A stretch of DNA of 64,000 nucleotides from the NCBI GenBank assembly GCA_002105175.1, contig MCGE01000006.1, positions 1,178,001-1,242,000 on the forward strand. Direction: 5' to 3'. The notes under the pieces are model-generated. The model did no database searches and was not told where the DNA came from. It was given only the letters and a program-made list of their open reading frames with translations. Each line of letters opens with the position of its first letter. Within the stretch, counting starts at the first letter, position 1. This document shows, piece after piece, positions 2,505-31,760 of the stretch. This DNA is from Absidia repens (lineage: Eukaryota; Mucoromycota; Mucoromycetes; Mucorales; Cunninghamellaceae). Made by a program: the position numbers and the translations under genes.

Positions 2505-3810
2505 GAAGGTACGTGGTAGAACACACAAATAACCACAATAATACCTTTCCTCATTATATAGTAGGTCATAGGAGTGATAATTGTAAGACATATTTTATTT
2601 CAAGCATATTGGTATATTACTAAAACTAAAGACGAATGGCTCAATGTAACATGGGATCTAAAATGGGTAGTGTAAAGGAGATCAATGTGAGATTTGGAGA
2701 ATGGCCAATGCCAATCTGAAGGGACAATTGTAAATGAGAGGTAATATAATGTGCAGTACAAGATACGAAAATGACAGAAGATATTTTTTTTAAAGTGCAA
2801 TAACGGTCAACACTTATCGAAGTTGGTATGGTTTAATAAAACGGGATCTATTGCACAAGACATGAGAGAGACTAATGAAATATTTTTCATTCGGTAATAT
2901 AAAAAGAGACATATTTTATTCAGATGTATATAGAAGTTATAGCAAACTAATATTAAACTAAGCTAATGATGGCTCCAAAAAGCCAGCTGATGGTGGTCTC
3001 AAATCTTGAATTCAATATGAAAGGGTTTCCCCATGCATCTTGTAATCCCTGTTCGGAAAACCCTTCTAAACTAGTCCTGAAAATATTCTAAGTCCAACCT
3101 AAACCCATGGGGGCTACGAGTGTGAAGAGAAAAAAAGATGAAAGAAAAGAGAAAGGACGGGGAAAAAAAAAAAAAAAAAAATGCAAGTAAATAAAACATT
3201 CACGTGGGCGGGTTTTAAATTGTTTTTCCGTCTCTCACCAGAAGTTGCAGTTCTATCCATTTCCCTTTTCGATAACATATTTCATTTCGATGAACAAAAC
3301 ACAAAAGCAGGTCCCAGAAGACTGGACTATTTTTGGAGTTCACACATCATAATATCGTTATCACACACAATACCGATACAATTTTCCTTTTCACGTTGAT
3401 ATCCTTATTGTGAGTACCTACTGACAGTGCAATATCGTGCTGTACACTGTACTGAGATTCAACAAGAAGGGTGAGAGGAATTTCTTAGATGGTTTGAAAA
3501 ATTGACCGTGATTTATGTATGAAAAAAAGACAGTGAGGGACGTATAAAAAAAAGCATGCATCAATGAGCGCATAAAAATAGGTATTTCGTTTACGCCCAT
3601 AAAAATTCCTATCTGTTTTTTTTGGGGGGGTAGGGGAAACGTCTTGATGTTTCAATTCCTCGACCCTTCAGTCAAAACCAATTAGTTTCAATGCGCAAGA
3701 CCTTTATTTTAAAAAGACCGCCCACAAAACAAAAAGATTTTGTTGAATTTTACCTTTACTATCGTATTGCCTGAATAAAAAAATTGTTGTTAAGTAAAAA
3801 TAATACCTTT
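2505..3810 (+). repeat. Dispersed repeat, copy A
   Basis: This stretch aligns by eye with copies B, C and D. Shared landmarks in order are: a TTTATT-containing left part near 2590; GGGATCTATTGCACAAGACA near 2845; the block CTAAACTAAGCTAATGATGG near 2955; ATGCATCTTGTAATCCC near 3032; CTTCTAAACTAGTCCTGA near 3063; a purine-rich tract; and TTCACGTGGGCGGG at 3199. Homology with copy C continues to about 3810 (GAGGAATTTCTT near 3474, CTACTATCGTATTGC-like sequence near 3760). No coding capacity and no clear terminal inverted repeats are seen. The left part before 2590 matches copy B best. Confidence 0.8.
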
Positions 3811-4396
3811 AATATTTTTTGTGAGCATCGTATGATCAAACATAAGAAACCATTTATATAAATTCCTAACGTATACTATATATTTACGTCATGATAAATA
3901 TACTTCTAGACATTCTTTGCAACAACTAATATCATATCGTCTTCATAAACAATTCATACACGATCGGCCTTTTTTTTTTACACCTAAAATAGTTACATGC
4001 GTTGTCATTTGACATTCAACCATGTTTATATATCATACTTTATTTTTGACACTATATTTGGACATGTGGTCATTAAAACCATTGAGACAAAGGTTATATA
4101 TGAAGAGAGGGGTAAAATGTTGTAATATTTTTATTTACTATTATTGAGTGATAAGACATTCAACGATATGTGAAACGAGTAAAAGCTATACTAATTATAT
4201 GACAATATAATAGAAAACAGAAAAAAGGAGGGTGATAAGGGAAGTATTAGGTAACGTCAAAATAATAAGTCAAGTAAAGAGTAGTAGGAGGTAAAATAGG
4301 TAAGGGTATATAAGAAGAGGATGAGGGAGGGAGGGGGGGGGGAATACAATAAACTAATTTATCAATAAGCTATCTACATGCTGTTCAGCCGAATAA
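3811..4396. other. Intergenic, no gene seen
   Basis: AT-rich sequence with a G-run at 4330-4341. It is the likely 3' flank of the minus-strand gene ending at 4397. No RNA gene or open frame stands out. Confidence 0.5.
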
Positions 4397-5917
4397 TCAT
4401 TGTCCATTTAAAGCAGGCGTTGTTTTTTGTTCCAATTGATCCAATCGATTCATCAAAGCCAGGAGTTCCATCTTCATTTCAGCCTTAGTAGCCATTGCAG
4501 GCGCTGTCATTGATGTCGCAGTAGTTTGCTGTTGCTTGTCCACTACTTTTGCTTCCAATGCCAATATACGGCCCATGCATTGCTCTATTTGCATCAGATA
4601 CGATGGCATCCAGTCGGTCATTTGCTTGGTGACTTGATTATCAATATTTTCTAACAAGGATGACTGCTGTAACTTCCCAAGGGTTACCGACGCTTGCCGA
4701 ATGGTATCATCCAGTGTCGATTTCTGTGTTCGAGTATGTTCCAATGTGCCGTGTAGTTGTTCAAAAGGGTGTAAAAATGATTGCCTTTCCGTACTTGCAG
4801 TGGATGATGGTGGAGGCGAGGATGATAGAGAGGATGACAATGAAGATGGACGGTGAGAACGGTTCATGCTGCCAGAAAGACCGGGTTTTCTCTGTGATGT
4901 CATCCGAGGTACGTCGTTAGGTCGATGAAACCGTGGTGATGATGATGGATGAACAAAATGACGAGAATTTGTACCACAGGTAGCAGCGGCAGCAGCAGCC
5001 TGTAACCGTTTGTTGATTTGTTGCTGGGAGATAGATTTTCGTAACGGTGCCGACTGTATCGAGTGTAGATGATGATCTTTGTATGTTGGCGTATTGATAG
5101 TTAAATGTGGTGCATGATGACCAAGTTTGGGAGCTAGCCGACGTTGCAATAATAATGAAGATTCTTTTGTCCTACCGTTGCAAAATATAGTGTTAGTATA
5201 TGTTTAGCTTTTGACGTAAGTCCCTCCCCCCACTAAATGATGTATTTTTGGTCTACCTGGAGTCCATATCTGTAACACTAACATCAGGTAAGGCAAAGGG
5301 CGGATAATGATGATGCTCTTCTTGAGGAGGAGATAGTCGTTGATGCTGTTGATATTGCTGTATCCACGGTTGCAGAAACCATTCTTGGCCGTCAAGTCGT
5401 ACAGGATGTAATACTTGTTCAACCAATTGTACATGAAGGCCGTTGTTAAAACGTGGCAAAGTTGGTGAAGGCATCGATGAGGTTACCACTGGTGTAATGC
5501 TGAGTAGAGGGATTCGTTGCAAGAGAGAATATCGTTCAATCACAGGTGTGTGTTCCGTGAGTTGGCAAAGGTCCATTAACAAATTCGCCTTGAAACAAGA
5601 AGCTAGTTCATAAAGTGCCTGGGTGTTGGCATACGTGTAACCATCAATCACATTTTGCAAAAGGCACTAGGATTATCGCGGTACAATTGTACTGTGTTGA
5701 CATGTCGGAATGTAGAGGCGGGCGAGAGTATGGCAAGGCGTTCTAGATCTTCCAGACAATAATAGTACATGGCATTTCGATCCAATTTTGCTTCTGTCAT
5801 TGTTGGCGATGTAGAGATAGGTGAGTTCAAAGGAGGTGATACAGACACGGGGAAGCGATACAAGCGAAATGTAGCGGTAGTGTCATATTTGCCGAGGACC
5901 AAAGCTTGAACTTTCAT
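4397..5917 (-). CDS. Unrecognised protein, Ser/Pro-rich with C-terminal coiled coil; frame break near 5650
   Basis: Two exons: 5917-5257 and 5171-4397, joined by an 85-nt intron with GTAGAC donor and TAG acceptor. The start is the ATG of MKVQALVLGKYD. Near 5650 the reading changes frame by one: upstream reads ...DNPSAFCKM then stop, downstream resumes as QNVIDGYTYANTQALYELASC. One extra T in the TTTT run on the coding strand would join both into one natural sequence, so I treat it as a single gene with a one-base break. A 35-nt GT-AG intron there would also restore frame but is very short. The C-terminal third is Ser/Pro-rich, then has a Leu/Gln/Met-rich helical segment ending NRLDQLEQKTTPALNGQ, consistent with a coiled coil. 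Family not recognised. Confidence 0.7.
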
Positions 5918-7464
5918 AATGAGGACAAGGTAATCAAACAAAAGAGAGGAAGGGGAAAAGAGAGAATAGAATTGATAAAAGGTGAGTTGTTGTTAAAAGT
6001 GAAAGGATTGTAGAAAAAAGGAATGTGCAAATAAAAGAAAGAGAAAGAATGGATAAAAATGGCATACCATCAATAAATAATAACAATTGGCAAGTTGGTG
6101 CACAAATGAGGGGACAAACGATATTTGAAATGGCGATGTCGACTTTCTTACCTTATTGATTTCGTCAATAAAAAACAAAAATCGACCTGCAGAAATATCA
6201 TTCCTTCAATAATTGAAAACTGACCAACTATAATCCAATGAATAAATAAATCGAATTAATCATGAAGGTATCATACGTTTCAATTATTCTACAGGAGGTG
6301 TATACCCAGTAATGATTAGTTAGGGGCTCTGGAGTGGAGATGGTGGACAGTCCAGAGGAACGACTTCAAACCCCGCCAAATTACGCGCCTCAAAATGCCT
6401 CATTGTTTTCCACAAATGGAATCTGGTCATCATTATTCGATATATTTCATAATATAAAAGCTGGGGAAAGATTGGGCCAGCCTTTATTTCATTTTTTAAT
6501 TGATCCATAATAGGCAAATTTTTGATTTGTTTGTTTTTCAAGAATTTATTGATTCTATATTTAATTGTGATCCATAAAGTCGGACCTATTGTTCTTTCAA
6601 TATCTAGAGCACTTAACCCCCTTTGTTAAAAATATCCAATACAGTATCCCAACCAATTTTTTTTTTTTTTTAATTAACAAAAGTGGCCTGCCTCTTAAAA
6701 AAAACACATCCTTATCACTACTACTAAGACACATACAACCAATGGATTAGACCCCGGCCAACATAAATAATACTTAGAATTCTGTCCGTAAATGTTTTAT
6801 TTGATAATATTGACAAAACAGATAATAAATGCAATTCTTTACAATACAATATCTATCAATAAATTCTGATAAAACTAATTATAAATCTATTCTAAGAGTC
6901 ACTATCACCAAATATATAAACTAAACCATGTAAAAACACACCACATTAAGGCTCATTCTTTTGGTATTCCAGATAGCACGCACCATGAGCCTGTATTACG
7001 ATTCTTCATTAGCAGAAGACTCGATAGATACGTTGTGATTAATGCGAGAATGAACCAGATGCATATCGCCGTTATGAATGTTGATGTTAAACTTGCCCTG
7101 GGTAGTTCAAAAAGATATCTTCGTAAGTAAAGAGTTAATTTGTCAGGTAATAGGATAGATGTGTGTAGAGTTTGTATTTCTTGGACGGAGGATGGAGGGT
7201 TTTGGTTATCTTGCTTCTTGCTTTCGTCCAGGTTTTACGATCAAGTGGACCTCATAATAAATACCGATTCTGTTTCCTTGGACTGTCACTCTGCATGACT
7301 CACTGTGGCCAATGTATTGTAATGTCTCAGTATCGTATCTAGTTTTCACCATGTTAATGTGTTAGCATCATACGGCAGTACATATACGCCACCGTCATAA
7401 GTGCTTGCTATTGTTCCGTCGCATAAATGGCGAAACAAAAAAAGCGACGGCTATGGAAAAAAAA
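5918..7464. other. Intergenic, weak coding-like fragment only
   Basis: Upstream flank of the preceding minus-strand gene and AT-rich spacer. On the minus strand 6541-6320 a 73-codon open frame (contains MDQLKNEIKAGPIFPQLLY) looks slightly better than random, but it has no matching exon around it. I see no RNA gene. Confidence 0.4.
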
Positions 7465-8300
7465 GAGGAGGGTGGTAGAACGCTGACCAAACAACTACAA
7501 TAACGGTTTTTCTTATAATCCAGTGGTTCATGGAAGGGCCAATAACTTGGCTATATTTCATTGAAACAATAGGCATTTATTAAAAATAAAGGGAAGAAGT
7601 TCATTGTAACAAGGGATCTGATGGAGGTAGCTTGAGAGAGATCTGAAGAATGAGCAACACTAATCTAAAAGGGCGACTTTAAAAAGGTATCTAATATACT
7701 ATACGAGGCAATGAGAAATTCTAAAAGAATTATCTGTTATTGAAGCTTAACGACAGGTCATTGTAGTAAAAAAGCAATCTATTCCACAAGACATGAGAAA
7801 AACTATTAGGTCATTTTTCATTGAAGTATGTAAAAAGATATATATTTTATTCAGACATATATACAAACTATGGTCAAACAAACACTAAACTAAGCTATTG
7901 ATGATTTCAAAGAGCCAACTTATAGTGCCTCCAGATCCTAGATCCAAAATGAAAGGGTTTCCCCATGCATCTTGTGATCTCTGTTCTGAAAACCCTTCTA
8001 AACTAGTCCTGACACTATTCTAAGTCCAACATAACCCCATTGAAGTTGAATGGTGAAGAAAAAATGAATGAAAAAAAAAAAATGAAAAAGAAGGAGGGCG
8101 GAGGGGAAAAAAAAAAATTGAAAGTAAACAAATTCACGTGGGCGGCCTTTGAAAACGTCTCTCGTGAGAGTTGGGTAGTGTTTTTTTGTTTTTTTCTTTT
8201 GGATACCAAAAAAGGAAACCAACTTTTGGTTTACAACAATCAGTACCATGCAAAACACTGTGGTTCCATTTTCATGATAGTAGTTGTTACCATATAACCG
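7465..8300 (+). repeat. Dispersed repeat, copy B
   Basis: Shares the ordered landmarks of the family: GTGGTAGAAC near 7473 (as in copy A), ACAAGACATGAGAAAAACTA near 7789, CACTAAACTAAGCTA near 7890, ATGCATCTTGTGATC near 7965, CTTCTAAACTAGTCCTGACA near 7994, a purine-rich tract at 8050-8120 and TTCACGTGGGCGG at 8133. The distal part (CAACAATCAGTACCATGCAA near 8236) matches copy D (CAACAACCAGCACCATACAA). Copy B appears truncated relative to C and D. It is non-coding. Confidence 0.78.
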
Positions 8301-8694
8301 CAAAGTATAGTACTTCTTCTAAATATTTATGAATGCGTGATAAAATAAAAAGTTGCCAAAGAAAACTGTAGACTTTCAAAAAATCACAAGGACATGGGCT
8401 CAAAATCAAATATACTGTGTCCCAATATCAAGGTTGTCTTTTTTTTTTTTTTTGTCATTAGTCACGCTCAATATCATAACCTGGGGATCGTTCATGTCAG
8501 TGGAACAAACTAAGCTCCGGCTGAAAAAACAAAATTGGCTTGTTTGGAAACCGTCCACTGGCTAATAGTTATCTTCGAGATTTTTCTCCCACACTCGCCC
8601 GGACCACATTTCCCGCTATCACACATCCCTTTTTACCTAAAAAAAATTCTGGGGAAGCATTTTATAATCTCAACCCTAAAAATCTTTAGCCGGA

Positions 8695-8727
<33 letters not shown>

Positions 8728-10453
8728 GATCAAATGGCCATTCAAGTCAAACATTGCGTCATTTACATTAAACTTGTTACAAGGGTAGATCCATAGTGAC
8801 AATATTGCGTCAATATATTAGTGTGTTAAGTATATGTAGACACAAAAGTAAAAAAAACACGTTGGCCACCCCTTGAATTTCCATGGTACAGCAGATACAT
8901 AATATCCCAGTTTTCTGTAAATGCGGAAATCGAAACCATTCCCAGCATTGGTAACATTTGCCTACCCCATTATTTTTTCTTTAACTCCTACCTCTCACAC
9001 GCTATTGTGATATAACAATCACATCATGGTGATAAAAAGTACTATTCTTTTTATATGTATATATACACATAAAGAAAGTATATTTAATTTTATTGTTGCG
9101 AATGAGGTCAGTGTTAAACACTGGCCTTCTCTTGTAAACATTGAAATCTTCTCACGCTTCCTTTTATGGAAATCTTACCATTGATCGTTCCTTTGCACCT
9201 TTTTTGTTTCCTCGGAAGCAACATTGAGTTTGCCCTGGTAATTATTCTTTTTTTTTTTAAAAAAAAAGATGGTGATTGATTAAGCGTTTTCGGGTCTTTA
9301 CGAAAAAAAGAGTTACCCAATAAATTGGTAGACGAATCTCAATCCAACTTTTGATCCAGGCAGCACTGTGTGATGAACCAAACTTTCAATGCAATTTATA
9401 TGACAAAAAAGGAAACAAAAAAAGATGATATGCACTCTGATGAACTAATAATAACTCAACCCATTGAAAAGTGCAACCATCTTTTGCCGCAACGACACGC
9501 CTTTTGGCAAACTTTCACATTCCGCCGCTTCCCCGTGTGATCCAATTGAAACAAGGGAACCTGTTGGTGTTTGGTTCTTTGTCATCCAATGGGTCTTTTT
9601 AGAGTACTGTATTAGCTAACTCTTTTATTTCCATTTATTTATATAGTATCGACACACACACACACACACACACCAAGTTTAAAAAAGTTACCCGATTTTC
9701 CATTTCTATCCACTTATACTAAAATAGTTTTTTTTTTTTTTTTTTTTTTTTTGACTCGGGGTTATTTGGTCCACCCAACGGAAAAAAAAACCTTGCCATC
9801 AACCACCATCAATGTTACAATCACTATTTTATTTTAGGTCAAGGGTAACAACATGAATGCTTAAACGAACAATGATCAGATAAATGCAATTATAACCGTA
9901 GTTTCGAGTCCCCCACTTTTACCGGCCTCAATGAATAAGCTTATTTTAGGACGGATTCTCTCTATACGCATATTTCTAAATGTTCCCCTGAATTCATTGC
10001 ACAACCTATAGATCCCATATTTCCATTATACCCCCAACTATTGTCCTACACAGTCATTACGGATTGAATAAACAATAAAGAAATCATGTAATTTGAGAAT
10101 GGCAAAAAAGAAAACAATTTTTATTCATACTAGTAAAAAAAAGTGTAAAAGCAGTAGACATTTTTTTTTTGAGTGATATATAAATAAAGAAGTAATAAGA
10201 TACAAGAGAAAGGCATATAATGGTGAAGAAGAAGAAAAAGAAGACAATGAAGGGTGATATATAATAAAAAAAAAAGGTATTACAAAGCGACAAAGAATCA
10301 AAAAAATAAAAAGCCAACAATAAAATGAATTCATAATGATAAACTATATAAATGTATAGGAAAAGGGAAATATATGATAACTAAATTGGGAAGAGTGGGA
10401 AAGGGCCGATGAAGGTGAGTGAGCTTGATTCATGTAATGAGCCGTCAACAGTG
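8301..10453. other. Intergenic with homopolymer and CA microsatellite
   Basis: AT-rich sequence with T-runs at 8441-8454 and 8698-8725, a (CA)n run at 9652-9673 and a T-run at 9730-9752. No gene supported. The last few hundred bases are the probable 3' flank of the Myb gene. Confidence 0.5.
9652..9673 (+). repeat. CA dinucleotide microsatellite
   Basis: An uninterrupted run of about eleven CA/AC units in otherwise non-repetitive spacer. Confidence 0.9.
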
Positions 10454-12409
10454 TTATTGATGATGAAGCTGTTGTGATTTGGAGGAAAGGACGTTGGTGG
10501 GTTGAGATAAATGGTTGAAGTAGGAGTAGACGTCTGATGGTGATGCTTGTATAGATGGCGTATGGAACACTTGCTTGATAGGACGCTGTTGGCTGTAGTT
10601 TATATCATGAGGGTGAGTGTTAGCTGAAGTTGCTGACCCTGATGGTGCAGGATGGTTGTATTGTGCCTGTGGTTGATGATGGTAATGGTGGTGCATATGA
10701 GGTAAGTGTTGTTGTTGCTGCTGCTGTTGCTGCTGCTGTTGAACCATTGTTGCACTGAAGTTATCACCGGAGGCAGAGTAATATTCGTGATTTTTTTTAT
10801 TGGTGCTCGTTCCATGAGGCGAGTAGTTTCCATATGTGCTAGAATGATTTGCCGGCACAGCGTTGGTATTGATAGATAATGGCGCGGGACCAGTTGTCAA
10901 AAGGATGGTGTCATCGTCAGTCGAGGAGGGACTGGCAGCGTCGTCAATACTGCTTGGTGATGAATAAGGTACTGCATCTGACACGTTAATGACATTGTTG
11001 TTTGAAGAAGAAGAGGATGATGATGAAGTAGAGGCTGAAGATGTTGACAATGATGGTGTCGCCATGGCTGTGGTTGATAAAGATGATCGCTGATGTTGTT
11101 GTTGTTCTTGTTGTTGCTGTTTGTTATGCTTACATTGCAGTTGCATCCATCTTGTTCGACATTGGCGCTAAAACAAAAAAAAAAGAAAAACGAGTGTTGG
11201 TGAAACATAATATCGACAGCGTTTTTTTTTTTTTTTTTTTTTTTTTTTTTGTTTCTTACCTGTGTGCGCCCAGGAATAGTTTCAGCAATTCGGATCCAGC
11301 ACCTTCCATGATCTTTTACACCGGAACGAAGTAATTGATCTTCGTCTGCACCCCATTTGCCTTTTCGGACATAGGGATCTAGGGCTTCAGTCCATCTAGC
11401 TTGACATTGAATTCCAGTCCGATTGGGGATCCTATCAGCAATTCGGTTCCATGGGATGGGTTGAATACGACCTTGATTATCCGTCACATTGGCATATTCC
11501 AGCACCGAATACTTCAAAATATTGTCTTCATATTCTGTCCAACGCCCTTTGTGGATATTGGGGCTACATAAAATCAAAAGCGTAAATAATGTGTACCTTT
11601 GTGTTTCTTCGAGAGCTAACTTACTTGAGTGCACCTAACCAACGTGTGGAACATTGCATGGGAGTTCGATTGGGGACATGCGAAGCAATCAGTGACCATT
11701 TGTGAGAACCGTGAATCGCCACTGCTTGTTTCAGACGTTCATCTTCTTCCAGAGACCAGCGAGAATACGATGATTGGCGCAATTTGTTCCTTTTGACGCT
11801 GTGGCTACGTGTTGTACTGACAATAGGGGATTGCATTATAGGAGCCTGTTGATACTGTACTGGCGTCACAACTGAAGTTTGTTGCTCATAATGTTGTTGA
11901 TGTTGCTGTTGTTGATGGTGATAAGAGGTCTGATTTTGGTAAAACGATTGGGATGTTGAAGGAGTGGAAGTGGGTGGCCAATATGTAGCTGGTGGAGTTG
12001 AACACGTAGACGCGGACGAGGATGTTGTCGCCGAAAGCGGGGCAACCGCAGCGGAATGATTGGCAGCAGGAGTAGGTATGTCGATCATCATCATTGCATT
12101 TACGGAAGGCGAAGAAGGAGAAGATTGAAAATGATAACGTCGTTGAGATAAAGAAGTAGAATGAGAGGAGGATGTCATAATAGGAGCTGGCTTTTGATAA
12201 TAGTGTTGCTGCTGCTGATGGTGCTGAGGGTGATAGGATGAAGATGCTGGTAGCACTGAATCCGTGGTGGAAATACCATCGTTATTGTTGACAGTTGTAG
12301 AATGCCAAGTGGATGGTTGGTCAGATGAAGTAGAAATTCCTGACAGTCCACCGCACCTTAATTCCCTGCTTTGTTGCTCCATCAATAAATAAGCATTTGA
12401 ATCGTTCAT
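10454..12409 (-). CDS. Three-repeat Myb-type transcription factor
   Basis: Three exons: 12409-11625, 11563-11260 and 11167-10454, giving 600 residues with all phases closing. Three tandem Myb/SANT repeats occupy about residues 216-370. Repeat 1 starts SRWSLEEDERLKQAVAIHG and ends CSTRWLGAL. Repeat 2 starts KGRWTEYEDNILKYSV and has a longer loop before its middle Trp. Repeat 3 starts KGKWGADEDQLLRSGVKDHG and ends QCRTRWMQLQC. The regular Trp spacing and basic third helices indicate sequence-specific DNA binding, so this is a nuclear regulator. Both splice junctions fall inside the Myb array. The flanks are Ser/Thr/Gln/His-rich with poly-Gln and poly-Ser, typical of activation regions. The second intron holds a 30-base T run on the plus strand (A on the coding strand). 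Targets are unknown; 3R-MYB or Bas1-like is the nearest class. Confidence 0.9.
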
Positions 12410-14000: not shown

Positions 14001-14009
14001 TACACCTCA

Positions 14010-14860: not shown

Positions 14861-15009
14861 CCCTGGTTTAGCCATCGCCAATGGTGTACTAAAATGGTAG
14901 ATCAAGTCAAATCAAGAAGTTTTTTCTTTGAAGAGAAAAAGAAAAAAAATTACCTAGCGGTAATTCAAAATATGAAAAGGGGGCAAGTATGAAGATGTAC
15001 TTTGGAGCC

Positions 15010-16699: not shown

Positions 16700-18186
16700 T
16701 GGTGAAACACTCATAAACTAGACACAGAGCAACATTGTTTACCTTCCGATTGGTTAGTTGATGGTTAGTAAAACGGTATACTTTATTGAGGCATTAGTAG
16801 ATACTAAAACTAAAGATGAGGGATCCATTGTAATAAGAGAATTAGTGGAAGGATCTATTAAACGAAGCTTGAGAGAGATTAAAGTGAGATTTGAAAAAAA
16901 AAGGAACACTAATCTAAAGGAACGGTTGTAAAATGGGTGGCAACGCACTGTACAAGACATGAAAAGGTTAAAGGCCTTTATTTATTGAAATATAACAACA
17001 GTCAACACTAATCACAAGGAGGTGATGGTGGTAAAAAGGTGAATCTATTACACAAGACATTTGAGAGACTAATAGTACGTTTTTCATTGAAGCATGTAAA
17101 AAAAAGATATTTTTATTCAACTTATATAGGAACTATGGACTAACTAAGGCTGAACTAAGCTAATGAAGACATCGAAAGATCATCTAATGGTAGGGTTAAA
17201 TCCTGATTCCAAAATGAAAGGGTTTCCCATGCATCTTGTAATCCCTTTTCTGAAACCCTTCTAAACTAGTCCTGACACTAATCTAAGTCCAACATAACCC
17301 CATTGAAGTTGAATGGTGAAGAAAAAAATGAAGGAGAAAAAAAAAAATGAAAAGAAAGAGAGCGAAAAATTAAAACTGGCGAAAAATAAATATTCACGTG
17401 GGCGGGATTTCAATTCTTTTTTTGTCTCTTGTCAGGAACCCTCCTTTTATATTTTGTAACAGCACCGTACACCATCATCTTCCAACATTGTCAGTATGGT
17501 TGCTCATGTAGTAATCTGGGCTAGTTTGTTTAAACCACTTCACTGTAGAATAGCATGTCGCTCACCGTAGGATAGCGTATGGTACGCTCTTTGTTTGATC
17601 TAGTTTATTTGGCAATATATTAATTGTACAGCAAGATACCTCCAACACACGTGTTCCATATTTACCCTCACATACGTCTAATTGCTTTACACTTTGATAT
17701 GTGTGATATACCATTTGACAGATTTGTTTTGTAATCTTAGCTTATATCTACATCGGGATAAAAATGTCTTTTGTTTGTTTTTACACTGTCTCTCATACAC
17801 GCTCAGTTTATCTTGTCGTATGGCTAAATGGTGTGTATGTGTGTTGAAAAAGAAAAAGGAGAAAATATGTATTGGATATAGAATAATACCGATCAAGCGT
17901 TTTCTCGGTGCTCCGTCGACTCTATCGAGTTTCTTAATGAATGGGTAAGAGGAATTTCTTGAAAAATTGTCGCGGTACACGTTTGAAAAAAACTAGTGAG
18001 GGAAGGACACATAAGAAATAAGCAACAATGAGCTTATAAGCCTATAGCAATGGAGGTGCACTGGAAGATTCAGTAGTCAGTTTATCCGCATAACATTTCT
18101 TTTGTTTTTTATGGAGACGGCGACGTCTTTAGAATTGCAATTTCGACCCAACCAAAAACAGACGATCAGCTCCAAATGACCAACGC

Positions 18187-18217
<31 letters not shown>

Positions 18218-18320
18218 GAAAAGCAAAGTTCACGCCAACCTCGCAATATTGTTTCTGTCTACCTCTACTATCATATTGCGGGTTTCAACGTTTTATTGTC
18301 AAGTAAAATAAATATGCTCT
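16700..18320 (+). repeat. Dispersed repeat, copy C (long form)
   Basis: One of the two longest copies. It starts with ACTCATAAA near 16709, shared with copy D, then follows the family order: TACTTTATTG near 16778, ACACAAGACATTTGAGAG near 17050, CTGAACTAAGCTAATG near 17151, ATGCATCTTGTAATCCC near 17230, CTTCTAAACTAGTCCTGACA near 17262 and TTCACGTGGGCGGG at 17393. The distal third is shared with D (CACTGTAGAATAG near 17542, a second TAGGATAG-like copy near 17566) and with A (GAGGAATTTCTTGAAAAATTG near 17950, CTACTATCATATTGCGG near 18266). Non-coding. Confidence 0.8.
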
Positions 18321-18657: not shown

Positions 18658-18691
<34 letters not shown>

Positions 18692-18693
18692 AG

Positions 18694-22349: not shown

Positions 22350-22880
22350 GTCTTATAGAGAGAAGGATAGTTGAAGCTGTACCTGAAATACAGTAAAAAA
22401 TATAGATTAGTTTGCTTGTGCCTGGAAGATGAAGTGAAGTCTTTTCCTACCTCTAGGTATTGGACAGTCAGTATTTTGTAAGTTTCTTCTTCGATCGTAC
22501 ACTCGATGGAATATATTCTCTTCTTTGTTTTTCAAGAAAAAAAAAGAGCGGTAATGAAATAAGAGAATATATACGATAGCGTGGATGGGGATATAAAATA
22601 AAAAGGCAATGATGAAAAGAATGAAGAGAAAAAAAAAAAAGAGGCAAAAAAAAATTGATTGTTACAGTTGTTCGAATTTTAAACTTCCGACGAGCTTAAA
22701 ATTATTCTAAAAAAACCCTCAACTGTTTTTTACTATCGTTTTCGTTTTTTTACTATGGTGAAAACGAAAAAGCAAGTATACAAAATTTTTATTATTGTTG
22801 TTATTATTTCTATTGATTAAAAACTCACTACACTACTATTCATTTATAGGGGAGGGGGGTTAGGCAAACGTAACAAAAAA
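22350..22880. other. Spacer between pik1 and the homeodomain gene
   Basis: Holds the pik1 5' leader and promoter (minus strand) and the 3' flank of the homeodomain gene. AT-rich; no additional gene seen. Confidence 0.5.
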
Positions 22881-23859
22881 TCATAATGTCGTTTTGAAAA
22901 GTTCAATGACTGATTTTGGTCTTTTCTTGGCAGGGGGATGGGATTCATCACCGCTACGCAAAGATAGATTCTCAAATCCTTGGTGGATACTATGCTTTCT
23001 TGGCGCAATGGACTGGACATACGGTGGGGTTGGCGGGGTGGCTTGATTATATGGCGGAGTGGAGGAAGATGGCATGGCGGTGATAGATGCTGGGCGTCTG
23101 GGTACTGATGGAGGAGGCATGGGAGCTATGGGCTGCAGAGAAGACGTAGGGCGATGTGGTGTAGTTGTAGGGTGGTTAGAAGGCGAGTCTGGGAATGCAT
23201 ATGAGGCTCGCCGTGGATGATGTGGTGCATATTGAATAAAGGGCTGGTGTGGTAATGGCGGTACGGGATGCATAGGGGCTGGATTAATAGGCTGTAGGTA
23301 TTGGTTCTGATGTTGATGATCAGGCCAAGGATGTGAATCGTATCTTGCTGAACTGCCATTATTGGGATTGGACATGGTCGCCGCTGCTACTCTAGCCCGA
23401 CTAGCCTTGGCTCGTCTGTTTTGGAACCAAACCTAGAGTAGATAGAATAGTTTATTAGTATTAGATATTTTTTATATTCGTGGTTATGATCGTTTAATAA
23501 AACCTTTTTCATTTTTTTATGATCTACATATGTATGCTTTTAAATATTTTTACCTGTACTTCTCGTTTCGTCATGTCAAGTTCGTCAGCAAGATTCTCTC
23601 GAACTTCCGAGCTTGGGGTATCGGTTTGTTGAAATATTTCCATTAATCGATTAAATTGTTGTGTAGATATTCGTTTTCGTTTTGCTTTTGGTGCATCCTC
23701 AGTAACAAATCCATGCCAAGTTTTTCTATTTTCTTTTTTTTCTTCTGAAGTGAGTTTTCTAGAAGAGGCAATAGGATCAACGCTGTCATCATTCAGAAGT
23801 GCAGATATGGCTAATGAACTTCTGCGACTATTACCAGAATCATACTCATCAGAATCCAT
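22881..23859 (-). CDS. Homeodomain protein; stop directly after the homeodomain, C-terminal frame displaced
   Basis: Exon 1 23859-23554 (102 codons) splices in phase 0 to an exon starting at 23433 with VWFQNRRAKA. The homeodomain spans about residues 58-115: a basic start KAKRKRIST, helix 1 and 2, and recognition helix KREVQVWFQNRRAKA with the invariant WF-N-R residues, so DNA binding in the nucleus is expected. Read strictly, the frame ends in TAG at 23394-23392 just after RAKASSG. Deleting one base in AGTTCGGGCT opens a continuous frame for 164 more residues rich in Pro/His/Ser (MSNPNNGSSARYDSHPW... to the TGA at 22881). I annotate the full span and flag the break: sequencing error, recent mutation, or a truly short protein are all possible. 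Upstream start is the first ATG of MDSDEYDSGN. Confidence 0.8.
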
Positions 23860-25929
23860 TATTTGTTTATGTGAAAATGAAAAAGATGAAAATGAAAAGA
23901 AAAAAAAGAGAGGAAAGAAGATATACATTGATGATGACCTTAGAACCCTTGCTCTTTGAACTCTTTCATTAGGCATCCTATTGACATGGTTTCAGTGAAG
24001 ATTATATCTGAGTTTAAAAACGCGCCATTCATCATTCAAGCATGGAAAGTGTTGAAACTGGAGAAATGAGTTAGAGTCCCATTTTCCATCTTTGATCTGC
24101 GTATTAAATAATTTAAACAATAAGGAAGGACAATGTGACTTTTCCTCACACTTCAAAAACGCCCCGAGTCATTCATTAGTTTTTCCTTTCACACCCCCCC
24201 TTTCTTTTTCTCCTTTTTCCTTCTTTTCTAAATGTTTTTCATTTTTATAAACTATATATATATAAATGCCACACGATTTAGAAAGATATGGCTCAATGTA
24301 TAGATATCAAGATGATGAAGAATCAATTCATCAAAGTCGAAGACATGCTCTTTTTATGCTCTTAGTAGTAGCATGTATGTCTTGTGTTTTTTTCAGTTAC
24401 AGGGTATCATCGGGATCTGGTACACCTTGCTCAACGTATATTATTTGGATGCCTTCTTGTAATAGAGAAGAGTACATGACCGGTTAGATATGATGTCAGG
24501 TTGATGTTATTTATTAATCATAGTGAATGCTGATCATAATAAACTTTCTTGTCCAAACACTTTTCTTGGCCAATGATATATCTGCATGATTTTTTATTTG
24601 TTTGTATTTTAAACAGCGCTAAAATGGGGGGGGTTAAGAAATCGAATGGCGTCCAAGACTTTTTTTTTTATTCTTTTCCCTCTATTTTTACTTTATATTT
24701 TTATACAAACACTTGAAGAATCACCAAATATCAACAATATTGATACCAGTAACAGAATTCCTTTTTCAAAATGCTTAAATGGCTACCCTTTGGCCATTCA
24801 TCAATCATCTGAAACACGTATACTCACCACCGAACTGTCGATATTCACCGCTTCCCCGTTACTTGTTTACAGTCGGTGATTGCCATACAAATAAATTCAA
24901 ATAGGCGATTCATTTCTGTCAAACCTCGTCTATTATACTGACTCCTTACTCAGTCATATACGAACAAGGACTCACCAACGTATCAAAGTATCATATGGTT
25001 AGTAAAATCCTATATAAAAATACACTTGAACTCACTCTCCTTTTCCTGAAAACTAGTTGTATACATGATACCTAATGGAAACCTGTGACAAAGAAACCAA
25101 ATATTGAATCAACTACATCATGCACGATGAGAACTAGTTTTGAATATCTCCGTAACATCTAGACCACCCTGCAATTCTGACGATGTTATCTTACAACCAT
25201 GATCAATGATGTTCGATATATTATTACCCAGTACTCTAGTAGCAGTTTGACAAAAACGAAGGTATTTTTGGACGGTCATAAACATATAGTTAAACTGAAT
25301 TTACCTTACACTCACTCCCCCTTTTTTTTTGGCTTTTATATTGTAGTATTCTTGTAAGTAATCATATAACCATCATTAATGATACGGCATTAAGGTGTGC
25401 TTCAATGGATGCTGTTAGGTGAACGTCATGTACTGTACTAGGTTTATAGCTGTTATTAGAATTAGTATATTTGAATTAGTCTGGGTCTCGGCATTTATTT
25501 TTCCGGGTCCACTTTTTTTTTTTTGCTCATTCATTATTTTGATGATGAAATAAAATAAAGTAAATAAATTTTTGGTTGAAAAGAAATACTTTGACTTTAT
25601 TGGATTGACCAGCATTGTGTATTGTATTGACTTTTTACTAAATTAATAATCAAAAAGAATTTTGGTGGGGAACTCAGTGCCAACGGTTGTGCGACGGGAT
25701 GTCGTAGTGACTGTTCCATAAAGGGCAATGGCAGTGATCAAAAAAATAGAGGATTGGACAAAAAAATTTGTGTTTGCCTTTTTTTCTCTTGGGACACGCA
25801 ATTTTTGCTTCTTCTTTTTTCTATTTTGATAACAAACAATTTTCCTTTACCTTTTGACCTCTTCTCTTTTCCTTCCTTTTTTTTTATTTTTTACTTGCCA
25901 TACTTCTTTATCTTCCCACTCAACCATAC
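23860..25929. other. Divergent intergenic region, possible tiny genes
   Basis: Lies between the minus-strand homeodomain start and the plus-strand Zn2Cys6 start. It contains the small open frame listed at 24266 and another at 24646-24879 that starts with a hydrophobic, signal-like stretch (MASKTFFFILFPLFLLYIF) but then loses any character. Otherwise AT-rich without recognised features. Confidence 0.4.
24266..24487 (+). CDS. Possible small membrane protein
   Basis: An ATG preceded by a TATA-like run (TATATATATATAA just upstream) opens 73 codons: a charged start MPHDLERYGSMYRYQDDEES, then HALFMLLVVACMSCVFF, which could span a membrane. A GT...TTTTTTTCAG stretch (32 nt from GTAGTAGC) inside would, if spliced, give an alternative end LQGIIGIWYTLLNVYYL, also hydrophobic. 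No family recognised. Real expression is unproven, and the possible intron is shorter than others in the window. Confidence 0.3.
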   Translation: MPHDLERYGSMYRYQDDEESIHQSRRHALFMLLVVACMSCVFFSYRVSSGSGTPCSTYIIWMPSCNREEYMTG

Positions 25930-28740
25930 ATGCATGCTGGATCCTTTATATCAGGCTCAGGGCAACAACAGCCGCAGCAACAACAACCATCTTCGCAGCA
26001 AGACTTGAAAAGGAAGCGGTTAACTCAAGCCTGTGATATGTGTAGAAAAAAGAAGGTAATAGATACTATGCTCATATCATATATGACTGTTTTACTGACT
26101 CCTTTCATTATATTGGGGGATATGGAAATGTTCTACTTAACAATAGATTAAGTGCGATGGTGGAAAGCCGACATGTGGAAATTGTGTGAAACTTAAACGG
26201 GAATGTACTTACATTCCAAGCAACAAAAAACGTGGACCAAGACAAGGATATATCGAAATGTTGGAGAAACGTTTGGACAAAATGGAAAAACTACTGACTC
26301 ATCCAAATGCTGAACAGAACGGACATACTACTACTTCTTCATCAACGACAACCTCACCTTCCGATAATACTGGTCCTCCTCCTCCACAACATCATCACAA
26401 CTCATTAGCCTTAAATACAGCTGCTTCCTCATCTTCGGAATCCGACATTGGACAATTGAACGTTCAACATTCGCACCCGAACATGCTTATACCAACACCC
26501 TTGACGATGGGATCTTCGTCAGACGACCCTGGTTTACGAAACAACAACAGTCACCATTATTCATCAACTTTGCATTCTCAACCACCACAACAAACATCTC
26601 AACAAAGCCCCATATTGCAACAACAGTCGCAGCAAAGCCCAGTATTACAACGAGTTAGTCATGAACGATCTGGTTCCAACTCTGATCAAACGTCAACACA
26701 GCCACCACAATCTTCCGCTTCTTCTTCGTCAACTACCGCTACGCCAACGTCCGCAACAGCACCGTGTATAGGCAACAGCAACAGCAACAGTACATCATCC
26801 AACTTTACTGATACACACGCTGCAGATGCCGACACCGCTCTTTTACCACCAAGGCCCATTGTAGAGCATTTGATCAAACTCTTCTTCGACAAAATTTACC
26901 CTTCTACTCCAATCTTTGATCCAAGAACCTTCCTACGGGATTATCGTGAAGACAAACATTCTGATTTCTTACTTTTATGTGTTTTATCTGTGGCTTCAAG
27001 GTAAGTCATCAGAGAAGGATGGATATATTGTTTATCAGTTGATATGATTGGTACTAACCTTTGGTATACTTAGATTCTCGGATGATCCTAATGTCAAAGA
27101 AGAACCTCCATGGAATTCCGGTGAAAAATATGCTGCGAAAGCACGTGAACTTTTGATCAATGCTGTGGATGACCCCAATCTATCGAATGTTCAAGCAATT
27201 ACTCTATTGGCATTGCACGAATTTGGATCTGCTCGTGGCCCAAGGTATACAAAAATAGAAATACCGTTTAGCAACCATGACTAAATATTTTTACTTTTAT
27301 ATATATGTAGGAGTTGGATGTATTCTGGGATGGCAATTCGAATGGTAATGGAATTAGGATTGAACAAGGAACCTGAGCTGGACCAGAGTACTGAACAAAA
27401 TCAGCCTGCCGATCGATGGATGGAACAAGAGGTGCGCCGTCGTGTGTTTTGGGTCGTCTTCACTATAGACAAGTAAGCCATCGTCATTTAAAAAGAAATA
27501 CAACAACTCGGAACAGATTATTAATTTATTCCACTTACTTAGTCTTGTTAGTGCTTCTACTGGTAGACCTTCTGTTATCAAAGTAGAAGATTGCGATGTA
27601 CTCCTCCCTAGCGATGAATATGGATGGGTCCGTGGCCAATTTTACACTGAAACGATGGATGGAAGTCGGGTAGTACAATTCAACGTGGGGGAACTTCGCG
27701 ATAGCAGCTTATTGGGCATCTCCAGCTTAGTCAGCCCCTCCTCACGACTATCAGCAACAACCGTGCCGACAAAGTCATCGAATGGCAATCTCTCTTGTCA
27801 TGCTTACCTCATTCGTGCCAACGCATTATTGGGTCGTATTGCCACGTTTGTCAACAGAACCACACGTGAACGAATGCTACCACCATGCAACCCTGACTCT
27901 GAATTCGCCAAACTAGATCGATGTATTGATGAATGGTACGACCAACTTCCAGCTGCTATGAAGTATACACAAGAAAACATGGATCGTCACAGAATGTCTC
28001 CCAACGTGGACAGTAGTCGGTTTGTTTTGGCCCATATCATGCATAACACGTTAACCGTCTTGTTACATCGACCCTCACTGGTACTTTTTGATACGCTGAA
28101 CTCGGAAGTGGTGCAGCCCCCTCTCAAGGAATTTTGTCGTGCAAGTGTAGAAAAGTGCTTACATGCGGTGGATAACGTGACTATAATGCTCAAGGCCATC
28201 AACAGCTGTGCCGATCTCATGCCTCCTTTCTTGACCTATCTCTCCTATACGGTGGCCACCATTGTTGTGAATAATACCTTTTCGTCAAAACCTGATGAAG
28301 CAAAGAAAGCAAGGTCTGATCTCAATGAACATTTCCGTTTACTTCAGGTAGGAAAAAAAATAATTAAAGAGATGGGGTGAAAGATATAAAGTTGACCTTT
28401 TTTTCCATTAATGCTTTGATAGTCAATGCGAAAGTATTGGGCTATGGCGGACAAGCTCTACTTTATGATTCGGGATCTGTATGCCATGCACAGCAACACT
28501 CTTCGCCACAACCATTCGAACGCCAGCAGCAATTCCAACAGCAGCAGCGGCAGTTTTGTGGAAGGTACCTCACCGCGGTCGATGTCATCACCATCGCTTA
28601 CGTCTCCGAACCCTTGGAACAATAGTAGCAACTCATCTTTAATCTCTTCAGTCTCAACAGGGCCACTACCACCATCCTCGTCCTCATTACAACAACAATC
28701 TTCACCGACGCTTTGTGATCTCAAATCGACGTCTAACAAT

Positions 28741-28797
<57 letters not shown>

Positions 28798-29169
28798 ACC
28801 CCTATCGATGGCAGTAATAGCTTCCTTCCCACCAACAATTTCTACTCTGCCACCAACCCGACGACAACGACGTTTGCTAATTACGATCCATCCATTAGAA
28901 AAATGTCTCTTGCTGAACTTGCGCTATCCACATGTGATGGTGCTTCGTGTACAAACTGGACGGTGGGTGACAATAGAGAAAATGTCGCGGCGGCTCTTCA
29001 ATCTCTGATGGGGCGAACCAACGGTGGGGCCGTGATGACTCAGCCTATGTTTGATCTCAACTCAACAACAACAACAAATGTACCAGTCTCTAATCCTTCG
29101 GTGGATACGCTTGCCTTCAATCTTGGATTTTCCAATCTAGATCCGTATAGCTCTTCATCTGCACCATGA
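25930..29169 (+). CDS. Zn2Cys6 transcription factor with fungal-specific regulatory domain
   Basis: Six exons: 25930-26055, 26147-27000, 27074-27244, 27311-27472, 27543-28347 and 28423-29169, giving 954 residues with all phases closing. The binuclear zinc cluster has Cys 35, 38, 45, 52, 55 and 62 (ACDMCRKKKIKCDGGKPTC...), split by intron 1 and followed by a coiled linker GYIEMLEKRLDKMEKLL for dimerisation. After a Ser/Thr/Gln-rich spacer comes the fungal-specific regulatory domain: HLIKLFFDKIYPSTPIFD, RSWMYSGMAIRMVMELGL, EVRRRVFWVVFTIDK, STGRPSVI. These are hallmarks of the XlnR/Fungal_trans family, so it should be a nuclear regulator. The C-terminus has a 22-residue poly-Asn run (28736-28797). 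Target genes cannot be told from sequence. The nearest ATG upstream of the cluster was chosen. Confidence 0.92.
28736..28797 (+). repeat. AAC trinucleotide repeat encoding poly-Asn
   Basis: About twenty consecutive AAC codons inside the last exon of the Zn2Cys6 gene. They are nearly pure at the DNA level, which suggests recent or ongoing slippage. Confidence 0.9.
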
Positions 29170-30189
29170 TTTGTATTTTTTTTTTATTATTATTATTTAT
29201 TATTTGTTTGCTCCTTGTCGCTTTTGGGGTGGGGGTGAATGGCGGTAAACCTTCCTTCCTTAAAGTATCCTCTTTTTATGCTTATTGTGTCACCCCGTCC
29301 ACTTCTCTTTTTTTTTTTTTACACCCAAACATGTAGTTTCTTATATATATATATATACTCACATTATTTTGTTTATTATTTTATGTAACTTTTACTTTTT
29401 TTTTTTTTAAATATTGGAAGAAAATGCAATAAAATATCACATCCATCATCGTTTTATATTATATTCAATGACATGTGCGGAAAAGAAAAGATCATTCACG
29501 ATCTTGATATACGGGGGTGGGTTTAAAAAAAAGGAGGCTGGTATCTATATTTATATGATAGGTGATTATATGAGATGATCAAAGTGGTCAAAGTTGTTGA
29601 ACTCAATAGAGGGTGTTTTGGTATGAATATGTGTGTGTTGCGTTTTTTTACGAAACATTCTCACAATTCCAAAATATTGGAACTACGGGTTAAGAATGAG
29701 TTTGTTGAAGTGTGGATTTTGATGAAGCTGGACTCTGGAGGTCATTTTGCATCTCGATAGTCAGCGCCTTTGAGCTCAGCTGTCTTTAGTTTGGGAGGGG
29801 AGAGACTTAAAAAATGAATATATACAATATGTCCGTTCTAGATGAAGCTACGCTGGTGACATAGCCTAGGTTAATTTAATATGAATGGTGGAGCTGGGGG
29901 CGGGCGCACGTTTCATATTAAGTGATCTAGAATTGTTAAACCCGTCATTAGGCTTCTTTGGGCGAGGGGGAGGGCGCAAGTAGTTATAGATACGCTAGAA
30001 TAGTGTGCAAAATGATTTTGAGCAAATGCTACACGCATAGAACGAGCGAGATTTATTTATATTATTGGTAGGGAAGGAGTATGGTTATTTTCAATGAATT
30101 ATGATATAAGACTGTCAACCAGTCACCTGGATGCTATGCGGGAGAAGGTAACTGCAGAGTGTAAACTAGAGAAGAGGTGTTTGATGGGA
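29170..30189. other. Intergenic 3' flank of the Zn2Cys6 gene
   Basis: T-runs and a possible AATAAA at 29429-29434. GC-richer islands near 29890-29990 share GGGGGCGGGCGCACG / GAGGGGGAGGGCGCAAG-like sequences without any gene. Nothing else recognised. Confidence 0.45.
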
Positions 30190-31760
30190 TACTCATAAAA
30201 CATATGCAATAGCAAAATTTGTTTATTCTTCGATGGTGAATAAAAAAAACACACTTTATTGGTGCGTATTGCTAGATACTAAACCTAAGGATGAGGTGTT
30301 CATTGTGTTAAAGGGATCTAATGGAAAACTCTTAAGTGAGATCTAAAAAAGGTCAACTCTAATCTAATGGGATATTTGTAACAAGGGATCTGATATATTG
30401 CACATGACATGAGAAAGATTGAAGACTGTCAATTTTTTTTTTTTGAACACACCAACGGTCAACACTAATCTAATTGGATTGATTGATAGTAAAAGACGCA
30501 ATCTATTACGTAAGACATGAGAGTAACTAATGGGACATGTTTCGTTGGAACAAGTAAAAAGAATCATTTTATTCAGATATAGATACAAACGATTGACAAG
30601 CTAACACTAAACTAAGCTAATAAAGGCTCCAAAAAGCCAACTAATGGCGCCTTCAGATCCTAGATCCAAAATGAAAGAGTTTCCCCATGCATCTTGTAAT
30701 CCCTGAGCTGAAACTCCTTCTAAACTAGTCCTGACACTATTCTAAGTTCAACATAGTCCCATAGCAGTTCAATGGTGAAGAAAAAATACAGGGAAAAGAA
30801 ATAATCAAAAAGAAAGAGAGCCGAAAAAATAAAAAAGACGGGAGAGAGAAAATAAAAATATTTCACGTGGGCGGGATTTCAATGTTTTTTTTTGGTGGAA
30901 ACAAAAAAGAGAACCTTGCCTTGTTTTTCTTTTTCCTTTCTTTAGCAACAACCAGCACCATACAACATGACAAATCTCGTCTCTTTTTAGTAACCATAAC
31001 CATTCAATAGCGACAGTATATTGGCTACCTCTTCCTTTTGAAGCAACCACCACTCTTGAACTTTGGCAGTAGGGTGAGACTCTTCAATTGGTGGCTCTGG
31101 ACTCACAGCACTGTAGAGCAATTTAATCCATATTTAGTTTATCCCCTTCACTGTAGAATAATTATCATTTGCCGTAGAATAGTTTACCTTTTATGATTAA
31201 ACTAGATTACCTTATATTGTATATATTTTACATCAGGATATTCGCACGCCCTAACCAACCCGACTTCAGATAGCTGTCAAGGTACTACAGTATCATTAGA
31301 CTCGTTTAATTTAGTTGTCATAAAACATATATATGCATATAAATAAAATATATATTGTATGTTTACTTTACATCGTATCATATGTTTATTTATCTTGTCG
31401 AAAGAGCATATCCAGACTATACAGTACTGTGCATGTGCCTGTTAAAAAGAATGCTGATATGTGTGCCAAAAAAAAAAAAAAAAAAAAAAAAAAGCAGCGA
31501 AGGACTTCCGAAACAATATGAAGTGATGAGCTCATAGAACCATGTCGATTAAAGCGCACTAAAAAGTACTTAGTATTGCTGTCTAACATTCCTTTTTTCT
31601 TTTTTTAAAAACATCTTGGTGTTGACATTTGTCAAAACCTACAAACTTTAAATGTCCACGGTTTTTTGATGAAGAAAAAAACACAACCATTTCAACGCAT
31701 AGCCTTTTTTATACCTTTACTGTAATATCACTAGCTCTATCATAATTATGTTATTATAAA
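30190..31760 (+). repeat. Dispersed repeat, copy D (long form)
   Basis: Follows the family order throughout: GATACTCATAAAA near 30188, CACTTTATTGG near 30252, GTAAGACATGAGAGTAACTA near 30510, CACTAAACTAAGCTAATAAA near 30607, ATGCATCTTGTAATCCC near 30686, CTTCTAAACTAGTCCTGACA near 30717 and TTCACGTGGGCGGG at 30862. Distally it matches copy C: CACTGTAGAATAATTATCAT near 31148 then GCCGTAGAATAG, then TTTATCTTGTCG near 31388. It ends with a CTTTACTGTAATATCA stretch near 31717 matching the distal end of A and C. It also carries a 23-base A run at 31469. Non-coding. Confidence 0.78.

What the first reader, a model, noticed from the sequence alone, without database searches (positions are those of the whole stretch)
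2505..31760. Unrecognised dispersed non-coding repeat family with four long forward copies
Copies at about 2505-3810, 7465-8300, 16700-18320 and 30190-31760 share the same ordered landmarks over 0.8-1.6 kb, including CTAAACTAAGCTAATG, ATGCATCTTGTAATCCC, CTTCTAAACTAGTCCTGACA and TTCACGTGGGCGGG. They lie only between genes and are diverged from each other. They encode no protein and lack obvious terminal inverted repeats or LTR structure. Four long copies in 64 kb implies a high genome copy number. It could be a MITE or Helitron-like element, a SINE-like unit or a decayed solo LTR.
Basis: seen in the sequence. Interest (0 to 1): 0.75.

Follow-up and report, generated by a model that had tools for sequence, protein, structure and literature searches.

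The report
Fungal dispersed palindromic non-coding repeat family
Thousands of scattered copies of a non-coding, once-palindromic repeat lie between the genes of this mould, and their shared centre has stayed alike while their ends decayed, as if the copies keep swapping sequence.

Summary
The repeat is real and larger than seen. An 18-base landmark has 3,871 matches (up to 3 mismatches) in the 47.4-Mb genome against 45 for the reversed control, about one per 12 kb. Protein hits suggest a Cunninghamellaceae mould. The shared unit is ~735 bp: ~100-bp tandem units, an 85-bp core (~91% consensus), an A-rich stretch and a CACGTGGGCGGG box. Homology fades outward; the right arm is an old inverted copy of the left. 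No sharp ends were seen. A young TIR transposon carries a diverged copy of the block, the only clean mobility found. Variants are shuffled among copies over tens of bases, and one pair of loci shares a 96% tract within 68-88% sequence. Best reading: an ancient non-autonomous foldback-like family whose centre is kept alike by sequence exchange between copies. Solo-LTR, SINE and structured-RNA readings are disfavoured. The mechanism is unproven.

The parts
2515..3224 (+). copy 1, shared block (model 2-734 of 735); faded left-arm homology 2373-2511
   Evidence: E 3e-153; left arm (E 3.5e-9, split-half model); its right arm not significant (E 0.49)
7473..8155 (+). copy 2, shared block; right-arm start 8181-8300
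   Evidence: E 1.6e-164; E 7.3e-12; no left-arm hit listed
16701..17418 (+). copy 3, shared block; right arm 17470-17820
   Evidence: E 3.3e-167; right arm E 1.3e-20; left arm not significant, E 0.68
30183..30887 (+). copy 4, shared block; left arm 29811-30181, right arm 30889-31402
   Evidence: E 3.3e-178; left E 5.2e-36, right E 1.4e-27 and 2e-13
   Evidence: E 3.3e-104; no arm hit listed
53755..53882 (-). degraded piece of the family (model 403-537)
   Evidence: E 1e-15
56225..56408 (-). degraded pieces of the family (model 1-94 and 282-387)
   Evidence: E 6.6e-13 and 1.3e-20
30668..30752 (+). most conserved 85-bp core within copy 4 (model positions 515-599, placed from the 17-mer at 30687)
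   Evidence: (mean consensus fraction 0.91 at model 520-600)
30862..30875 (+). TTCACGTGGGCGGG box at the right edge of the shared block, near the centre of the palindrome
   Evidence: for the centre in L079

Best explanation
An ancient, non-autonomous, foldback-like (palindromic) element that spread to roughly 3,800 sites in a Mucorales mould. Its arms then decayed at each site, while the centre stayed alike because copies keep exchanging sequence (ectopic gene conversion, or template switching if they still move). Shown: copy number, anatomy, inverted arms, graded conservation, shuffled variants, mosaic identity between loci, and one young TIR transposon that carries a diverged copy of the block. 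Inferred: that the main dispersal was by transposition, that the exchange is gene conversion, and that the core or the CACGTG box is what focuses it or is preserved by it.
For: Copy number, strands about equal. Placement of 149 listed copies on contig C1 near random (gap CV 1.01, variance/mean 1.11). Inverted arm: 20 of 76 downstream flanks carry minus-strand core homology at E up to 0.1 (12 at E<0.001), 265-735 bases after the model end; reversed flanks 0 of 76. One of the 20 (L014) lies inside a nested transposon and should be left out, giving 19 of 76 (11 at E<0.001). Near-complete palindrome L079, arms 95% complementary; inverted core pair in L080 (88%). Split-half models find the outer left arm in 42 of 70 and the right arm in 37 of 67 copies at E<1e-5; no reversed flank reached E<0.01 (the alignment behind both halves was made jointly). 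Internal ~100-bp units u1-u3: z 7.6, 8.5, 14.4. Core identity 0.82-0.91 in every bin of flank identity over 2,144 of 2,211 pairs, 0.82-0.83 in the four bins holding 2,141. Per-site spread in the core three times the binomial expectation. Core conservation is not due to how copies were chosen: 9 copies picked only by the distant CACGTG box give 0.911 in the core against 0.770 in u1-u3; in the 10th, L074, no core was found. All four combinations at 2,079 of 2,080 pairs of two-allele sites; linkage falls with distance, above the site-permuted level at 20-50 bp (P 0.002; transversions 0.004) and near the column-shuffled level beyond 200 bp. C28 and C37 share, in order, 88, 96, 82, 71 and 68% identity. 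L034 and L041 share ~0.8 kb at ~93% falling to background on both sides. A TIR transposon with an 8-bp duplication in L014 carries a diverged copy of the block; 14 other places match at least 920 of its 992 inner bases at 87-94%.
Against: No sharp common ends; target duplications could not be sought because ends cannot be placed; no transposase partner was searched for genome-wide. So transposition of the bulk of copies is inferred. Short-range linkage may partly reflect alignment choices; excess linkage is not significant from 50 bp on. Two-allele sites could be sites where either base is tolerated. Flank identities come from multiple alignments that are poor in AT-rich flanks. The near-invariant CACGTGGGCGGG box, set apart from the core by a variable A-rich stretch, suggests function, which exchange alone does not explain. 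In one search only 83 of 588 bases of the C28 right arm matched C37, so the upstream side of that mosaic is thin. The TIR transposon may simply have captured a copy. Only 77 aligned copies of ~3,800 were read.
Confidence: 0.48

Rival explanations
1. A still-mobile non-autonomous family in which the core and CACGTG box are needed for mobilisation. Lineages that spread keep the core; other parts drift; recombination happens during replication.
For: Graded conservation with near-invariant blocks; low linkage; 33 other places share a larger composite with L051, three of them 91-96% alike over ~0.9 kb; a young TIR transposon carries a diverged block.
Against: Ends are ragged; the 96% tract does not extend along the pair; only 3 of 2,144 copy pairs have flank identity of 0.75 or more, which would need very many source copies; no coding partner in the pieces read, though none was searched for genome-wide.
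Confidence: 0.25
2. A host element kept by selection at each site, for example a protein-binding site, boundary or terminator at gene ends.
For: Core found in 9 of 10 copies chosen by another motif; near-invariant CACGTGGGCGGG; 9 of 15 copies with predicted genes on both sides lie between convergent genes, 1 of 15 between divergent; 29 of 41 flanking gene sides face the copy with their 3' end (tallied by hand).
Against: Spacing is random, not regular (from a partial list, though pairs under 2 kb are fewer than random, 4 against 10.9); linkage decay is not expected of independently maintained sites; avoiding promoters explains the gene-end bias; a palindromic ancestry of about 2 kb is not needed for a binding site.
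Confidence: 0.13
3. Solo LTRs of a long-dead LTR retrotransposon.
For: Two composite loci read (C28, L015) carry two direct copies 2.8 and 2.4 kb apart with a shared middle; many other loci match the same middle followed by a second block.
Against: In C28 the two copies are only 65% alike over 627 bp; no open frame above 120 aa in the middle as far as read; no common TG...CA ends seen; the inverted arm is not an LTR feature. A solo-LTR-like insert with TG...CA ends and a GTTTC duplication sits inside copy L065.
Confidence: 0.08
4. A multicopy non-coding RNA gene, transcribed leftward from the CACGTG box.
For: On the minus strand the box is followed by pyrimidine-rich sequence, the core and an AATAAA (seen in the sequence).
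Against: RNAalifold on 60 of the 77 copies predicts no pair (+ strand only); in the window Rfam reports only a U3 RNA, not in a copy; weak Rfam matches in L079 are below cut-off and span the palindrome.
Confidence: 0.04

Closest known systems
Foldback-like elements such as Galileo of Drosophila (PMC3573991; passages found by term)
   Same: Long, internally repetitive inverted arms; non-autonomous copies made only of arms; arms of up to ~1.1 kb; wide structural variation
   Different: Galileo has a P-superfamily transposase; here none is known, outer ends are not defined, one arm is usually far more decayed than the other, and the most conserved part is not at the ends
MITEs and TIR transposons
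   Same: Non-coding, high copy number, between genes, inverted-repeat ancestry; one TIR transposon of this genome carries a copy of the block
   Different: The family itself shows no sharp ends, and its core is conserved far more than its ends
Repetitive DNA of Absidia glauca (35% of the genome, cited in PMC4133162; passages found by term)
   Same: Related moulds are reported as repeat-rich
   Different: No sequence was available to compare; older work on A. glauca repeats and the SEG1 element is recalled, not seen
Palindrome arm-to-arm gene conversion (human Y palindromes, PMC3723533; search listing and start of abstract only)
   Same: Inverted arms kept alike by conversion, as may hold for L079
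   Different: There within one palindrome; here exchange appears to be between many dispersed loci

Membership tests
Foldback-like / MITE (TIR DNA transposon) | inverted arms | tested here: met
   19 of 76 flanks after leaving out L014, reversed control 0; L079 arms 95% complementary
Foldback-like / MITE (TIR DNA transposon) | sharp ends shared by copies | tested here: not met
   homology fades outward; nested inserts in L014 and L065 do have sharp ends
Foldback-like / MITE (TIR DNA transposon) | target-site duplication | not testable with these tools
   ends of family copies cannot be placed and no related genome is held; a TIR transposon that carries a copy of the block has an 8-bp duplication in L014
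Foldback-like / MITE (TIR DNA transposon) | related autonomous transposase element | not tested
   no genome-wide transposase search was run; no open frame above 120 aa in the composite pieces read
Foldback-like / MITE (TIR DNA transposon) | internally repetitive arms (Foldback/Galileo) | tested here: met
   u1-u3 units, z 7.6-14.4; u4 not significantly related (z 1.1-2.8)
LTR retrotransposon / solo LTR | two near-identical direct repeats around an internal region | tested here: not met
   direct copies in C28 65% alike; one locus measured
LTR retrotransposon / solo LTR | TG...CA ends with 4-6 bp duplication | tested here: inconclusive
   ends cannot be placed; no common TG...CA seen by eye in alignments
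SINE | RNA-pol-III-type head (tRNA, 5S, 7SL) | tested here: not met
   no tRNA in window and 20 loci; no such Rfam match at E up to 1 in L035, L050, L079; a very decayed head could be missed
SINE | 3' terminal A-rich or simple tail | tested here: not met
   A-rich stretch is internal, followed by the CACGTG box
Helitron | 5' TC, 3' hairpin and CTRR, A^T target | not testable with these tools
   ends not sharp; no related genome for empty sites
Structured ncRNA family | conserved, covarying secondary structure | tested here: not met
   0 pairs predicted on 60 copies, + strand

The most novel reading that the evidence does not exclude
About 3,800 dispersed non-coding loci in one fungal genome evolve as a single recombining population: exchange between loci, focused on a ~100-bp core (for example a recurrent break or recombination site), keeps the core alike across the genome while the outer parts of each ancient palindrome erode.
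Probability: 0.25. Interest if true: 0.78.

Novelty: new variant of a known kind. Interest (0 to 1): 0.5.

Why it matters
If each match carries the 735-bp block, the family makes up to about 6% of this genome (3,871 x 735 bp, inference), so it would shape genome structure, rearrangement and repeat annotation in these moulds. If the copies really exchange sequence across the genome, they offer thousands of natural replicate loci for measuring ectopic gene conversion in a fungus, and a core whose function can be tested directly.

Tried and rejected
RNA gene: no conserved pairs on 60 of the 77 aligned copies; weak Rfam hits in L079 span the palindrome. SINE/tRNA. LTR. A hairpin I first saw by eye in the core (GAAAGGGTTT...AAAACCCTTC) was dropped: the partner position is A or C at about equal frequency opposite a near-invariant T. 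Regular spacing as for origins or boundaries: not seen in the partial list. Counting private variants to separate selection on copies from selection on source lineages was set aside: under a star tree slow sites give more singletons than fast ones, so the test is confounded. Global pairwise alignments inflate random identity to ~0.65 and were used only for the steep fall of one pair, whose outer arms were not detected. Relatives elsewhere: 18-mer in viral contigs 0 hits; 17-mer in genome contigs 10 hits in bacteria and archaea, fewer than the ~30 that equal base frequencies would give in 257 Gb (my estimate). No collection of fungal genomes is held; the host is placed only by protein hits (best named 75%, Chlamydoabsidia padenii; family). 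Literature: nine searches listed no paper that by title or abstract start describes this family; searches list 12 of 331 and 8 of 492 papers. Two papers were opened, for passages only.

I had first treated it only as a control for sharp ends.

Limits: 77 copies in the main model, selected by exact 17-mer on C1, by BLAST to copy 4, by the CACGTG box (9 of 10 fetched) and from the window. L029 (a duplicate of copy 4) was still and was dropped and from then on; L079, L080 and L091 were never in the model. The coding predictor was trained on 15 ORFs of the window, and loci with two copies are counted twice. The search tool scores only the best candidates, so hit counts from DNA queries are lower bounds.
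Full report
Observation. The four landmarks lie in order in the four forward copies, and a reference-free repeat search recovers the same families. A profile of the shared block finds five main copies in the window, 2515-3224, 7473-8155, 16701-17418, 30183-30887 (all +) and 53185-52790 (-), and degraded pieces at 53882-53755 and 56408-56225 (-).

Copy number. In the window's own assembly (47,368,516 bases, 79 contigs) the 17-mer ATGCATCTTGTAATCCC occurs exactly 557+566 times (control, the pattern read backwards, 0+0); CTTCTAAACTAGTCCTGA with up to 3 mismatches 1,950+1,921 times (control 26+19); TTCACGTGGGCGGG exactly 369+358 times (control 1+0). That is about one per 12 kb. On contig C1, 149 distinct listed copies are placed near randomly (gap CV 1.01; 100-kb variance/mean 1.11; strand runs 71, 73.4 expected), with fewer gaps under 2 kb than random (4 against 10.9) (a partial list, since at most 100 places are printed per search).

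Host. The protein of window ORF 39265-41256 (-) matches bHLH proteins of Mucorales, best named hit Chlamydoabsidia padenii at 75%, next Halteromyces radiatus at 63%, both Cunninghamellaceae. No near-identical named protein was returned, so the species is not identified. PMC4133162 (passages) cites 35% repetitive DNA for Absidia glauca.

Anatomy. Aligning 68 copies and then 77 copies to a profile gives a ~735-bp block: three related ~100-bp units (u1-u3; pairwise z 7.6, 8.5, 14.4), a fourth segment u4 that is not clearly related to them (z 1.1-2.8), an 85-bp core (mean 0.91), an A-rich stretch, and a near-invariant TTCACGTGGGCGGG box. Outside, homology fades: the share of copy pairs with a colinear BLAST match falls from 0.97 at the core to 0.02-0.03 at -750 and +300. 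Models trained on half of the loci and tested on the other half find the outer left arm in 42 of 70 flanks and the right arm in 37 of 67 at E<1e-5 (40 of 67 at E<0.01); no reversed flank reached E<0.01.

Palindromic ancestry. Searching 76 downstream flanks with the core model gives 20 with minus-strand matches at E up to 0.1 (12 at E<0.001), 265-735 bases after the model end, and 5 plus-strand matches at scattered places; the reversed flanks give none. One of the 20, L014, lies in a nested transposon, leaving 19 (11 at E<0.001). The right-arm consensus matches the reverse complement of the left arm at 78% over 81 columns. Locus L079 is a near-complete palindrome: arms 95% complementary over 192 and 98 nt, on either side of the CACGTG box; L080 has an 88% pair over 91 nt and L034 an 84% pair over 63 nt. 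In the other aligned copies the right arm is on average much more decayed than the left.

Not an artefact of selection. Nine of ten copies chosen only by the CACGTG box keep the core; they agree with the consensus of all other copies at 0.911 in the core and 0.770 in u1-u3; in the tenth, L074, no core was found. For the 17-mer-selected copies the core without the 17-mer is 0.887.

How the copies evolve. Core identity between copies is 0.82-0.83 whether the flanks of the pair are 0.45-0.54 or 0.68-0.72 alike (flank values depend on the alignment). Per-site conservation is far more uneven than binomial (sd 0.109 against 0.032 at model 520-600): near-invariant bases stand beside two-allele sites, some of them transversions at near-equal frequency (561 A/C 37:30; 587 T/A 40:36). 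At 2,079 of 2,080 pairs of 65 two-allele sites all four combinations occur. With 99 sites, linkage declines with distance (mean r2 0.095 at 1-10 bp, then 0.051, 0.037, 0.033, 0.030, 0.024, and 0.023 at 400-735; column-shuffled 0.020; site-permuted P 0.002 at 20-50 bp, 0.064 at 50-100; transversions alone P 0.004 at 20-50 bp). Under 20 bp alignment choices may contribute. Sites where either of two bases is tolerated would also give four combinations, but not a decline with distance.

Mosaic pairs. A query from L051 (contig C28) beyond its right arm matches 33 other places at 68-96% (34 candidates scored), 23 of them over about 600 bases or more. Against C37 the colinear identities are 88% (83 bp; the rest of that 588-bp query had no listed match there), 96% (~850 bp), then 82%, 71% and 68%. 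A single insertion event would give even divergence; a tract of 96% within 68-88% sequence is what conversion between two older copies would leave. L034 and L041 show the same kind of step, ~93% over ~0.8 kb, but their outer arms were not detected, so that pair is weaker evidence.

Composite loci. In C28 two direct copies start 2.8 kb apart around a non-coding middle; L015 has the same order, 2.4 kb apart. The two copies in C28 are only 65% alike over 627 bp, so they are not the LTRs of a recent insertion. C28 copy A is as close to L015 copy A (69.8%) as to L015 copy B (69.2%), whereas the middle, with the start of copy B, is 73% alike between these loci.

A transposon carrying the block. Inside copy L014 lies a 1,394-bp element with inverted ends of ~200 bp (first 188 perfect) and an AATAAAAA duplication. 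Between its ends it holds a diverged copy of the block in the opposite direction (model 280-542, E 1e-25). Fourteen other places match at least 920 of its 992 inner bases at 87-94%; its 17-base end, with up to 1 mismatch, occurs 53+57 times (control 0+0), and by eye at least 7 of the 14 have exact inverted ends on both sides about 1.3 kb apart. So at least this derivative of the family has moved recently, either because it captured a copy or because the family descends from such elements. Inside copy L065 a 282-bp TG...CA insert has a GTTTC duplication. Ordinary mobile ends are therefore recognisable in these data; the family copies themselves show none.

Setting. No copy of 29 overlaps a predicted coding segment by more than 60 bases; of 15 with predicted genes on both sides, 9 lie between convergent, 5 between tandem and 1 between divergent genes. 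The predictor is crude and some genes are kilobases away.

Rejected classes. No tRNA in the window and 20 loci; in the window Rfam reports only U3; no consensus RNA pairs on 60 copies of the + strand.

Verdict. I commit to an ancient non-autonomous foldback-like family with exchange between copies (0.48). A still-mobile family with a constrained core (0.25) and a host-selected element (0.13) remain open. What would decide is a second genome and the full set of copies.

Noticed in passing
L014:3156-4549: 1,394-bp transposon with ~200-bp inverted ends and an 8-bp AATAAAAA duplication, inserted in a family copy and itself carrying a diverged copy of the block; 14 other near-complete places, several on contigs C29, C35, C43 and C50.
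   Followed up: partly
L065:711-992: 282-bp insert beginning TGATG and ending TTTCA with a 5-bp GTTTC duplication, inserted in the core of a copy; looks like a solo LTR of another element.
   Followed up: partly
window 63737-63950 (-): U3 small nucleolar RNA (Rfam RF00012, 60.9 bits).
   Followed up: no
window, e.g. 28726-28838, 42560-43171: Long trinucleotide tracts that read as poly-N and poly-Q runs in long open frames that look like transcription-factor genes.
   Followed up: no
window, e.g. around 171-208, 38695-38782, 52033-52068: Many long A or T homopolymer runs, one over 60 bases.
   Followed up: no
L091:2341-3001 (-): Protein-kinase-like gene whose 3' end faces the composite repeat (judged by eye).
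   Followed up: no
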